Below are positions 3,346-35,801 of a DNA stretch of 64,000 bases, piece after piece; position 1 is the stretch's first letter; each line of letters begins with the position of its first letter. A program made the translations under genes and the position numbers. The DNA is from Candidatus Minthosoma caballi. Its GTDB lineage: Bacteria; Bacteroidota; Bacteroidia; Bacteroidales; Bacteroidaceae. The notes under the pieces are model-generated. The model did not search any database. It was not told the origin of the DNA and saw only the letters and a list, made by a program, of their open reading frames with translations. The stretch spans positions 1 through 64,000 of the forward strand of contig JAGHVC010000109.1 of assembly GCA_018064505.1 (NCBI GenBank). Direction: 5' to 3'.

Positions 3346-5505
3346 TTATTCTTCTTCTTTGTTCTGAGCCTCAAACTCTGCCATGAGCTTCTGCTGGATG
3401 TCGCTAGGAACGAGCTCGTAGCTTGCGAACTTCATGATGAAGCTTGCGCGACCGCCAGTGATGCTTGACAAAGTAGTAGAGTAGCTGCTGAGGCTCTTCA
3501 ATGGCACCTTAGCGATGAGCTTTTCGTAGCCATTCTCACTTTCGCTGCCAATGATCATGCCGCGGCGTCCCTGAAGGTCAGACATTACATCGCCCATCTT
3601 GTCGCCAGGAACAAACACTTCTACATCATAGATTGGCTCGAGGAGCTTAGGGCCAGCATTCTTGAATGCCTCAGAGAATGCGTGACGACCTGCGAGCATG
3701 AATGAGAGCTCGTTTGAGTCAACTGGGTGCATCTTGCCGTCATATACGATTACTCTTACATCGCGAGCATAGCTGCCTGTGAGAGGGCCTTGCTCCATGC
3801 GGCTCATGATGCCTTTGAGGATGGCTGGCATGAAGCGAGAGTCGATAGCGCCACCAACAACAGAGTTGATGAACACAACCTTGCCGCCCCAATCCAGTGT
3901 GACTTCTTCCTTGCCTTTTGGAGTGATCTTGAACTCCTGATTGTTGAACTTGTATGTTGTAGGCTCAGGCATTCCCTCATAGTATGGCTCAACGATGAGG
4001 TGCACTTCACCAAACTGGCCAGCGCCGCCTGACTGCTTCTTGTGGCGATAGTCAGCACGAGCCGACTTAGTGATTGTCTCGCGATAAGGAATCTTTGGCT
4101 CTTCGAAGCGAACATAAATCTTCTCATTGTTCTCAAGACGCCACTTCAGAGTGCGGAGGTGGAACTCTCCCTGTCCCTTGATGAGTGTCTGCTTCAGTTC
4201 CTTGCTCTGTTCGAGGATCCATGTAGGATCTTCCTGGCTCATCTTCTGGATGGCAGCAACCATCTTTTCTGTGTCAGCCTCGTTCTCAGCCTTGATAGCA
4301 CGGATATACTTAGGGTTAGGGTACTTGACAAAGTTGAACTTATTCTCGCAGCCAGGGCCAACAAGCGTATTGCCTGTGCGAACATCCTTCAGCTTCACTG
4401 TGCAGCCAATGTCGCCAGCAACGAGTTCTTCCACCTTGATGCGGTTTGCGCCGGCACAAGCGAAGAGCTGAGCAACACGCTCCTTAGAGCCGCGATCTGC
4501 ATTGATCATGTCGTCGCCTTCATGCACCTTGCCGCTCATCACCTTGAAATACTGCACGCCGCCGATGTGTGGCTCGTTGGCAGTCTTGAAGAAGTAGAGA
4601 GATGTAGGAGCGTTAGGATCAGGGTTCACTTCCTCGCCGCGAGTGTTGTGCACCTGTGGCATTTCGTCAACAAATGGCACTACATTGCCGAGGAATTCCA
4701 TCAAGCGGCGAACACCCATGTCCTTGTATGCACAAACGCAGAATACAGGGAACATGCTTCTTGCAGCCAAGCCCTTGCGGATGCCTTCGCGCATTTCATC
4801 TTCAGTAAGGCTTTCTGTCTCGAAGAACTTCTCCATGAGAGTCTCGTCGTTCTCAGCAGCAGCCTCGACAAGAGCGCGATGCATTTCCTTAGCCTTCTCC
4901 ATTTCCTCTGCAGGGATATCCTCAATGATAGGAGCTCCGCCTTCAGGCTTCCATGAATACTTCTTCATGAGGAGCACATCGATGAGGGAGTTGAAGTCAG
5001 GACCTTCGTTGAGAGGGTACTGCACAGGAACAACCTTAGTGCCATAGATGTCGATGAGATTATCGAGCACTTGGTTGAAGTCGCACTTCTCAGAGTCGAG
5101 CTGGTTGACAAGGAAAATTACAGGCTTGCCAAGCTTCTCTGTGTAGCGGAAGTGGTTCTGAGTGCCAACTTCTGGACCATACTGACCGTTGAGAAGGAGA
5201 ATTGCTGTGTCAGTAACATTGAGAGCTGTCATTGCAGCACCTACGAAGTCGTCAGATCCTGGGCAGTCAATGATATTAAGTTTCTTACCATTCCATTCAA
5301 CATGATATACTGTAGAGAATACGCTGTATCCGTATTCCTGCTCAACAGGGAAATAGTCGCTCACTGTGTTCTTTGCAGTGATGCGGCCGCGGCGTCCAAT
5401 GATGCCTGCTTCATACAAGAGTGCTTCGGTAAGTGTTGTCTTGCCTGCACCATCATTGCCAAGGAGGGCAATGTTCTTAATTTCGTTGGTCTGGTAAACT
5501 TTCAT
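3346..5505 (-). CDS. fusA2: elongation factor G paralogue (EF-G2 type, degenerate GTPase motifs)
   Basis: Full-length EF-G architecture; P-loop GNDGAGKTT; G3 DCPGSDDF instead of DTPGHVDF; G4 NQLD instead of NKMD. Confidence 0.9.
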   Translation of the reverse strand: MKVYQTNEIKNIALLGNDGAGKTTLTEALLYEAGIIGRRGRITAKNTVSDYFPVEQEYGYSVFSTVYHVEWNGKKLNIIDCPGSDDFVGAAMTALNVTDTAILLLNGQYGPEVGTQNHFRYTEKLGKPVIFLVNQLDSEKCDFNQVLDNLIDIYGTKVVPVQYPLNEGPDFNSLIDVLLMKKYSWKPEGGAPIIEDIPAEEMEKAKEMHRALVEAAAENDETLMEKFFETESLTEDEMREGIRKGLAARSMFPVFCVCAYKDMGVRRLMEFLGNVVPFVDEMPQVHNTRGEEVNPDPNAPTSLYFFKTANEPHIGGVQYFKVMSGKVHEGDDMINADRGSKERVAQLFACAGANRIKVEELVAGDIGCTVKLKDVRTGNTLVGPGCENKFNFVKYPNPKYIRAIKAENEADTEKMVAAIQKMSQEDPTWILEQSKELKQTLIKGQGEFHLRTLKWRLENNEKIYVRFEEPKIPYRETITKSARADYRHKKQSGGAGQFGEVHLIVEPYYEGMPEPTTYKFNNQEFKITPKGKEEVTLDWGGKVVFINSVVGGAIDSRFMPAILKGIMSRMEQGPLTGSYARDVRVIVYDGKMHPVDSNELSFMLAGRHAFSEAFKNAGPKLLEPIYDVEVFVPGDKMGDVMSDLQGRRGMIIGSESENGYEKLIAKVPLKSLSSYSTTLSSITGGRASFIMKFASYELVPSDIQQKLMAEFEAQNKEEE

Positions 5506-5631
5506 TATTCTATTAGTTTTATTAAGGTATTAGTTTCAAAAATCGCGCTAAAATTACTGCTTTTTTGACTAATGGATAGTGGATTTTATATGTTGTAAAA
5601 CATTTTAGCATTTATTGTCAATAATTATGAT

Positions 5632-5639
5632 TAATTTTG
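5632..5639 (+). promoter_or_regulatory. putative -7 element TAATTTTG
   Basis: TAnnTTTG immediately upstream of hemW. Confidence 0.45.
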
Positions 5640-5647
5640 TGGCGTAA

Positions 5648-6763
5648 ATGGCAGGAATATACATACACATACCGTTTTGCAAGACAAGATGCATATATTG
5701 TGGCTTTTTCTCTACAACCTCGTTAGGGAAGAGGACTGCGTATGTAGATAAGCTCTGCAGCGAGCTCTCAGAGAGAAGAAGCTATTTGCCATCAGGGCAG
5801 ATAGACACGGTGTATTTTGGCGGAGGAACCCCATCGCAGTTGCCGGTAGAGGATGTGGGCAGGATTCTGCAATGCATTTATAATATATATAATGTACGCG
5901 AGGGTGCAGAAATCACATTAGAAGGAAATCCTGACGATCTGAGCAAGGAATGTCTGACAGATTTGAGAAGGATAGGGGTTAACCGCTTGAGCATGGGCGT
6001 GCAGACATTTGACAATAGACGCCTGTCGTTCTTACGCAGAAGACACAGTGCTGAGCAAGCAGAACAGGCAGTAAAGATGGCTCAAGAAGCAGGTTTCAGC
6101 AATATAAGCATTGACTTGATGTTTGGCTTTCCTTCGCAGAGCATTGAAGAGTGGGAGCAGGACTTGCAAAAGGCAGTCAGTCTTGGAGTGCAGCACATTT
6201 CGGCTTATTCGCTTATGTATGAAGAAGGCACGCAACTGACAAAGATGCTTGAAAAAGGAGAGGTTGAGGAGATAAGTGACGATCTGTCGCTGAAAATGTA
6301 TGAAGTGCTTATGACCACTCTCGCAGACAATGGATATGAGCACTACGAAATCTCGAACTTCGCAAAGCCAGGTTTTCGTTCAAGGCACAATTCAAGCTAT
6401 TGGCAAGGGATTCCGTACCTTGGGGTGGGGGCAGGAGCGCATTCTTACGATGGCGAGAGGAGGCATTTCAACCCAGATTCGTTGACGGGATATTTGTCGG
6501 GCGCAGCTTTGGACGAGGAAGTATTGACAAGCGACATGCTTTATGATGAGTTTGTTTTCACTGCATTAAGGACATCTGAGGGTATAAATCTTGATGAATT
6601 ATCGGCAAGATTTGGCGAACAACGCAAGGCATTTTGCATGGCAAATGCCGACAAGCACCTGAAGGCAGGATTGCTGGTGTGCGAAAATGGCGTTTTGCGA
6701 CTCACTCGCAAGGGGTTGTTTGTGTCAAATGATGTAATGTCTGACCTAATGTTCGTTGATTGA
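5648..6763 (+). CDS. hemW: radical SAM HemW-type protein (formerly coproporphyrinogen III oxidase-like)
   Basis: MAGIYIHIPFCKTRCIYCGFFS radical-SAM motif, YFGGGTPSQL. Confidence 0.9.
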   Translation: MAGIYIHIPFCKTRCIYCGFFSTTSLGKRTAYVDKLCSELSERRSYLPSGQIDTVYFGGGTPSQLPVEDVGRILQCIYNIYNVREGAEITLEGNPDDLSKECLTDLRRIGVNRLSMGVQTFDNRRLSFLRRRHSAEQAEQAVKMAQEAGFSNISIDLMFGFPSQSIEEWEQDLQKAVSLGVQHISAYSLMYEEGTQLTKMLEKGEVEEISDDLSLKMYEVLMTTLADNGYEHYEISNFAKPGFRSRHNSSYWQGIPYLGVGAGAHSYDGERRHFNPDSLTGYLSGAALDEEVLTSDMLYDEFVFTALRTSEGINLDELSARFGEQRKAFCMANADKHLKAGLLVCENGVLRLTRKGLFVSNDVMSDLMFVD

Positions 6764-35247: not shown

Positions 35248-35780
35248 AACCTTTTTGTTTTTTCTACTTACCTACTTACCCTTTTTGCTGCAACCAATAG
35301 ATAATGAGTGCGTTATGCAGGGTAAGTACCTGCCTTCATACTTACCCTTTACTTACCATAAACCTACCCTATAGAGGACTACAAAAGAAGCACTCATATT
35401 TTCTTTTACTTTCATTCGGTATTTGCACAGCCAGCCTTCTGCCGTAAAACTTTTCCTGAAACTTCCGTAAAACAATTACGGACGAACCGTAACCTTATTA
35501 CAGCAGTTGCAGGAACAACATTACGGAAGAACCGCAATGAAATTCCTGCAATTGCCGTCAAAGCATTATGCAGAAGAGTCTGCAAACATAGTTCTGACAA
35601 CAATCCAATTGCGACAAAACGGAAAAGCCAGAACAGATAGCCTTTGCTGCTTGCTCTATGTGGTAAGTAAAGGGTAAGTAAGGGGTAAGTGTCGCTATCG
35701 ATACTTACCCTATGTAACGCCCTCATTATCTATTGATTATAGCAAAAAGGGTAAGTGGGGAAGTAGCAAAGGAAAAAGTT
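35248..35780. repeat. non-coding element bounded by ~100-bp inverted arms
   Basis: Arms 35264-35358 and 35661-35766 near-complementary over their length; ten ACTTACC(C)/(G)GGTAAGT iterons; weaker extension to 35248/35780. Confidence 0.85.
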
Positions 35781-35801
35781 ATGAATAAGCGAAGGAACAG
35801 G

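What the first reader, a model, noticed from the sequence alone, without database searches (positions are those of the whole stretch)
35248..35780. About 0.5-kb non-coding element with long inverted arms and ten ACTTACC iterons
Between the GH2 and C69 dipeptidase genes, the left arm CTACTTACCTACTTACCCTTTTTGCTGCAACCAATAGATAATGAGTGCGTTATGCAGGGTAAGTA...TTTACTTACCA (35264-35358) is nearly the reverse complement of 35661-35766. The octamer ACTTACC(C)/(G)GGTAAGT occurs ten times (35266, 35274, 35320, 35340, 35351, 35662, 35672, 35683, 35703, 35749). Inside each arm GGGTAAGT...ACTTACCC forms a secondary hairpin. The ~300-bp core has further hairpins: TCCGTAA-aacaa-TTACGGA near 35463-35482, and TTGCAGGAA...TTCCTGCAA near 35507-35551. 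There is no convincing ORF. It could be a MITE-like element, an iteron-bearing replication or binding site, or a remnant of a larger Bacteroidales mobile module.
Basis: partly seen in the sequence, partly recalled or inferred. Interest (0 to 1): 0.75.

Follow-up and report, generated by a model that had tools for sequence, protein, structure and literature searches.

The report
Deleted copy of helicase-only mobile element
This 0.5-kb non-coding stretch is a shrunken, gene-less copy of a small, apparently undescribed kind of jumping DNA in Prevotella-like gut bacteria, whose full-length form carries only one gene, a DNA-unwinding replication starter, between two mirrored sets of short repeats that this protein most likely recognises, and which has no recognisable transposase.

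Summary
In detail: ten exact ACTTACC sites in two inverted ~115-bp arms around a hairpin-rich core, no conserved ORF. It is a dispersed, genome-specific element: more than 20 arms and 7 cores in the host genome, while six syntenic relatives have 7-96 bp where the window has 683 bp. A full-length relative in the same genome, and one in Candidatus Minthosoma equi, carry one gene between such arms: a 416-425 aa VapE/DUF3874 protein, fold of the SaPI initiator helicase PriRep1 with a C-terminal winged helix. In 40 of 69 VapE loci (mostly rumen Prevotella) the gene is flanked by the same inverted layout, against 0 of 49 other genes and 0 of 345 shuffles, but the iteron differs between elements and tracks the C-terminal domain (partial r 0.38, 0 of 999 permutations). 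A second genome shows the same pair: one VapE element plus four ~0.5-kb derivatives with its iteron and upstream core. Best reading: a MITE-like deletion derivative of a helicase-only, iteron-armed mobile element. Binding by VapE is strongly supported but inferred; replication-driven copying is likely; the integration step is unknown (no transposase, no target duplication found).

The parts
35250..35782 (.). whole non-autonomous element (arm - core - arm)
   Evidence: in six relatives the GH2-C69 gap is 7-96 bp against 683 bp here
35253..35376 (+). left arm: outer tandem iterons, spacer, inverted iteron, inner iterons
   Evidence: arm copies elsewhere in the genome
35654..35777 (-). right arm, inverted copy of the left arm
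35266..35272 (+). iteron 1, ACTTACC
35274..35280 (+). iteron 2
35321..35327 (-). iteron 3 (inverted)
35340..35346 (+). iteron 4
35351..35357 (+). iteron 5, 11 bp after iteron 4
   Evidence: 11-12 bp is the family's dominant spacing
35662..35668 (-). iteron 6
35673..35679 (-). iteron 7
35684..35690 (-). iteron 8
35703..35709 (+). iteron 9 (inverted within the right arm)
35750..35756 (-). iteron 10, followed by a degenerate outer copy GGGGAAGTAG
35435..35560 (.). conserved core block with CCGTAA/TTACGG repeats and hairpins; corresponds to the region upstream of the VapE gene in the full-length element
   Evidence: 7 copies in the genome, all inside elements; matches C9:2343-2445 between an arm and VapE
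35464..35482 (.). core hairpin TCCGTAA-aacaa-TTACGGA
35507..35551 (.). core hairpin TTGCAGGAA...TTCCTGCAA

Best explanation
The window feature is a non-autonomous, internally deleted copy (MITE-like) of a ~1.5-2.3 kb mobile element. The full-length form carries one gene, a VapE-type (PF05272) initiator helicase with a C-terminal winged-helix domain (PF12990/DUF3874), between two inverted arms of element-specific iterons. Shown: the multicopy arms and core; the full-length partner in the same genome; the same arrangement in dozens of species; change of iteron together with the C-terminal domain; the same autonomous/deleted pair in a second species; the initiator-helicase fold. Inferred: VapE oligomers bind the iterons of both arms through the winged helix, open the DNA and unwind through the core, so that the stretch between the arms is copied; deleted copies keep only the cis-acting arms and core and are moved in trans by VapE. 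How the copy is inserted is unknown: no transposase, recombinase or nuclease is encoded and no target-site duplication was found, so a host enzyme, or an unrecognised activity of VapE, is needed.
For: Copies of arm and core across the host genome; syntenic relatives without the element. VapE as sole gene between the same arms in C9 of the same genome and in G030. Inverted arms around VapE in other species with other iterons; strict test 40/69 VapE loci, 1/69 same-orientation, 0/345 shuffles, 0/49 other genes. Iteron similarity follows the C-terminal domain given AAA+ identity, partial r 0.376, 0/999 permutations; same-genome pair L142/L175 with 99% identical AAA+ parts, 64% C-termini and different iterons; strongest columns in the wing and just before the predicted recognition helix. 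PriRep1 (SaPI) is the best match by sequence (E 2e-19) and fold (E 3e-17). Second autonomous/deleted family with iteron CTCCTAC, derivative cores matching the region upstream of VapE (67, 71, 72). SaPI Rep and Cch2 are known to recognise iterons with their C-terminal domains (PMC7581432).
Against: No experiment shows binding, replication or movement. No target-site duplication and no base-exact empty site, because relatives are too diverged. A helicase alone cannot join DNA. Some VapE elements sit at the same locus in several species, so part of the family may be inherited vertically. 29 of 69 loci fail the strict arm test, although several of these visibly have arms with degenerate iterons.
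Confidence: 0.68

Rival explanations
1. A conventional MITE moved by an unseen host or phage transposase/recombinase; VapE is a frequent passenger that uses the ends as its replication origin.
For: Helicases do not integrate DNA; a HigBA toxin-antitoxin pair is found between arms in place of VapE, so arms can carry other cargo; no target-site duplication to name a mechanism.
Against: VapE is the one gene recurring between the arms in dozens of species; the arm iterons change together with the VapE C-terminal domain, so VapE and not another protein probably reads the ends; derivative cores derive from the VapE element.
Confidence: 0.15
2. The arms are immobile replication origins or operators belonging to VapE, inherited vertically; extra copies come from duplication and recombination.
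For: Some VapE loci are at conserved positions; initiator iterons often also autoregulate (general knowledge).
Against: Copies at many unrelated sites within a genome, flanking genes mostly not conserved, element absent between conserved neighbours in six relatives, similarity of the two ends dropping to background about 15 nt outside the outermost iteron.
Confidence: 0.1
3. The gene-less copies are kept as decoys that titrate the initiators of incoming VapE-bearing phages, satellites or plasmids (superinfection immunity).
For: Gene-less copies retain the iterons; VapE-like helicases are common in phages and satellites; several elements with different iterons coexist in one genome.
Against: Does not explain how the copies spread, nor why the core is retained.
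Confidence: 0.05
4. A structured RNA or the 5' leader of the adjacent GH2 gene.
For: Strong predicted folding; lies upstream of GH2.
Against: Folding comes mainly from inverted DNA arms; copies lie in unrelated contexts on both strands; no Rfam family at its gathering score; absent upstream of GH2 in relatives.
Confidence: 0.02

Closest known systems
SaPI/PICI replication modules (Rep, PriRep1 and their iteron origin) and SCCmec Cch2
   Same: Self-sufficient initiator helicase of the same fold; C-terminal dsDNA-binding domain; short iterons next to the gene (PMC7581432).
   Different: There one origin downstream of rep inside a large island with an integrase or recombinase; here two inverted iteron arms enclose the single gene, no integrase, many dispersed copies and gene-less derivatives.
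MITEs with an autonomous transposon partner
   Same: Short, AT-rich, inverted ends, multicopy, internal deletion of a full-length element.
   Different: The partner encodes an initiator helicase instead of a transposase; ends are ~115-bp multi-iteron arms; no target-site duplication found.
PINSR, the 188-bp Prevotella intermedia/nigrescens repeat (PMC4755523)
   Same: Non-coding intergenic multicopy repeat in Prevotella.
   Different: PINSR has no terminal inverted repeats according to its authors; no iterons or VapE partner are described.
BT4734/BF3469-type VapE genes of Bacteroides (~700 aa), some beside HU-family genes
   Same: Homologous AAA+ and DUF3874 parts; several also have inverted arms (L134, L135, L341).
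   Different: Longer N-terminus; loci L342 and L343, with an HU gene beside VapE, lack inverted arms.

Membership tests
MITE (non-autonomous derivative) | multicopy, short, no coding capacity, inverted ends | tested here: met
MITE (non-autonomous derivative) | shares ends with an autonomous element in the same genome | tested here: met
   C9 VapE element in the host genome; repeated in G121
MITE (non-autonomous derivative) | autonomous partner encodes a transposase | tested here: not met
   only VapE/DUF3874 is recognised between the arms; no transposase family matched it
MITE (non-autonomous derivative) | target-site duplication | tested here: inconclusive
   no enrichment of flanking direct repeats; typical of many but not all MITEs
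SaPI-type initiator helicase with iteron origin | initiator helicase fold | tested here: met
   7pds PriRep1, E 2e-19 by sequence, 3e-17 by fold
SaPI-type initiator helicase with iteron origin | C-terminal dsDNA-binding domain specific for the iterons | tested here: inconclusive
   winged-helix topology predicted and co-variation with the iteron; binding itself not testable here
SaPI-type initiator helicase with iteron origin | part of a phage-inducible island with integrase and att sites | tested here: not met
   elements are 1.45-2.3 kb; no integrase between the arms or recurring beside them
Insertion sequences and other known transposons | DDE, HUH, serine or tyrosine recombinase gene | tested here: not met
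   no such family matched in the proteins between the arms
Iteron plasmid | circular replicon with Rep and iterons | not testable with these tools
   no reads to look for arm-to-arm circle junctions
PINSR repeat | 188-bp repeat without terminal inverted repeats | tested here: not met
   the window element has long inverted arms; PINSR described

The most novel reading that the evidence does not exclude
A class of transposable element in Bacteroidales whose only self-encoded factor is a self-loading initiator helicase that recognises inverted iteron arms and spreads the DNA between them by replication, with non-autonomous derivatives moved in trans and with element-specific iterons forming many mutually independent specificities.
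Probability: 0.5. Interest if true: 0.92.

Novelty: categorically new. Interest (0 to 1): 0.8.

Why it matters
It gives a function-level handle to the very common but unexplained stand-alone VapE/DUF3874 genes of Bacteroidales: they look like the autonomous members of a mobile element family without a recognisable transposase. If VapE alone suffices, bacterial DNA can be mobilised by an initiator helicase plus host enzymes. The natural series of winged-helix domains with different cognate iterons is also a ready data set for protein-DNA specificity, and the elements break metagenome assemblies at many contig ends.

Tried and rejected
Structured RNA: no Rfam match at gathering score (sub-threshold hits judged chance). 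Protein-coding core: 104-aa ORF not preserved between copies. Known repeat PINSR: different. Target-site duplications in 54 elements: none beyond background. Base-exact empty sites: window flanks in G030 and other relatives are syntenic but too diverged; a flank of the copy on contig C101 was sought in 45 genomes of the genus (intergenic parts too diverged to use) and a flank of a G121 copy in 300 genomes, the latter with no synteny on the other side. DUF6078 as an obligatory partner: next to VapE in only 29 of 80 loci. Defence-system models for the cargo genes: nothing convincing. The loose iteron test (at least 3 copies per side) had false positives around other real genes (4 of 32), so the strict layout test is used for the claim. 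Literature: eight searches of the open-access library found no description; subscription papers are not covered.

Full report
OBSERVATION. Ten sites in ~0.5 kb against 3.8 expected in 64 kb is not chance. Each arm reads, from outside inwards: a T-rich end, one or two outer iterons, a spacer, one inverted iteron, then two or three inner iterons one helical turn apart.

IT IS A DISPERSED ELEMENT. A search of the window's own genome (3.2 Mb draft, 245 contigs) found 47 matching stretches on a dozen or so contigs: one further full-length copy (C101:59551-60071, 79%), core-plus-arm copies (C70, C217, C191, C50) and many arms, a good number within ~250 bp of contig ends, as expected of a repeat that breaks assembly. 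The core block 35435-35560 has seven copies, all inside such elements. Between the same GH2 and C69 genes, six relatives have 7-96 bp where the window has 683 bp. A seventh (L123) has an unrelated insert.

THE FULL-LENGTH FORM HAS A GENE. In C9 of the same genome (L040 800-2790) and in G030, Candidatus Minthosoma equi (L047 4256-5930; L139 names the organism), the same arms enclose a single 425- or 416-aa gene with Pfam VapE-like (E 5e-37, 1e-38) and DUF3874. The window's core corresponds to C9:2343-2445, between an arm and the VapE start. So the window element is arm + upstream core + arm with the gene deleted. In G030 CCGTAA hairpins like those of the core lie just outside the arm instead, which is unexplained.

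THE ARRANGEMENT IS GENERAL, THE ITERON IS NOT. VapE homologues in related genomes have the same inverted layout with other iterons: CATCCTACC, ACCTCACA, ACATGTACC, ACCTAACA, ACCTCACTT, AGTGACCCA. A scan of 85,462 species genomes gave 80 close VapE loci, mostly rumen Prevotella. Strict test (at least two copies of a 7-mer at helical spacing on one side and at least two of its reverse complement on the other): 40 of 69 loci with full flanks, 1 of 69 in the same-orientation control, 0 of 345 shuffles, 0 of 49 other genes in the same loci. A looser test had real-sequence false positives and is not used for the claim. Most iterons look like variations on AACACCTCACC. Spacing of successive direct iterons is 11-12 bp in 138 of about 205 cases, the outermost iteron lies a median 51 bp from the inverted one, and +-+++ is the commonest layout. 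Similarity between the two ends falls to background about 15 nt outside the outermost exact iteron, and flanking direct repeats are not enriched. Flanking genes are mostly not conserved, except a DUF6078 gene beyond the right arm in 29 of 80 loci, also seen beside a Parabacteroides VapE.

WHO READS THE ITERONS. Over 1378 pairs of elements, iteron similarity correlates with DUF3874 identity after removing AAA+ identity (partial r 0.376, 0 of 999 permutations), and not with AAA+ after removing DUF3874. Relatedness between elements is only partly removed by this control. The clearest case is one genome with two VapE proteins 99% identical in the AAA+ part and 64% in the C-terminus, with iterons TTCAGTTT and CCTTCACA. 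The AlphaFold model (pLDDT 86) gives the C-terminus a winged-helix topology; the best-associated C-terminal columns, 394, 366, 391 and 397, fall in the wing and just before the predicted recognition helix. The nearest solved structure is SaPI PriRep1. For SaPI Rep and SCCmec Cch2 the C-terminal domain binds iterons (PMC7581432).

REPLICATION OF THE FINDING IN A SECOND SPECIES. Prevotella sp. UBA2456 (G121) has one VapE element with iteron CTCCTAC and four ~475-606 bp gene-less copies with arms 86-91% identical to its right arm. Their core matches the region between the left arm and the VapE start, and their inner right end matches the end of the VapE gene plus the right arm. These are internal-deletion derivatives, arising independently of the window's family.

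MECHANISM. Shown: anatomy, copy number, absence from syntenic relatives, autonomous and deleted pairs in two species, iteron/C-terminus co-variation. Inferred: binding of VapE to the arms, unwinding and copying of the DNA between them, mobilisation of deleted copies in trans. Unknown: insertion. Nothing encoded between the arms resembles a transposase, recombinase or nuclease involved in transposition.

COMPARISON. By protein it is a SaPI Rep/PriRep1-like initiator; by behaviour it is a MITE with its autonomous partner. It fails the transposase criterion of the second and the integrase/island criterion of the first. No description was found in the open-access library; subscription literature was not searchable. 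'Categorically new' refers to the element's anatomy; that VapE itself drives movement has perhaps an even chance.

Noticed in passing
L037 2805-4450 (contig C101 of the window's genome): Arms of the same family flank a HigB-HigA toxin-antitoxin pair instead of VapE, so the arms can carry other cargo.
   Followed up: partly
L034 317-6026 (contig C70): A chain of one left and three right arms with a 492+294 aa gene pair without Pfam match and a 91-aa ORF plus PIN-domain gene between them.
   Followed up: partly
L142 and L175 (Horse_feces38, JAKSJD01): Two VapE elements in one genome with nearly identical ATPase parts but different C-termini and iterons, a natural domain-swap experiment.
   Followed up: partly
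L338, L339, L340 (Prevotella sp. khp7): Very short copies of about 200-350 bp, two arms almost back to back without a core; L338 and L339 also share at least 65 bp of one outer flank.
   Followed up: no
L343, L138, L067: Other VapE loci of Bacteroidales, some beside an HU-family gene, lack inverted arms but show short repeats at 22-bp spacing near the gene, perhaps a single-origin relative.
   Followed up: no
L183, L186, L190: VapE elements with different iterons sit at the same place, immediately downstream of what looks like a conserved typA/bipA gene, in different species: hot spot or iteron switching.
   Followed up: no
many arms in the 80-locus set (e.g. L143, L163, L165): The spacer between outer and inverted iteron often holds a near-palindrome such as CCTTTGTACAAAGG (TGTAYA in 22 of 108 arms, about 4 expected), possibly a second recognition site.
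   Followed up: partly
L331, L334 and neighbours (UBA2456): Dispersed intergenic repeats CTCGTTGAGGACGAG...CCGTAA next to, but outside, the elements.
   Followed up: no
L146 from about 5300 to 6000: 72-bp tandem repeat downstream of the VapE gene.
   Followed up: no
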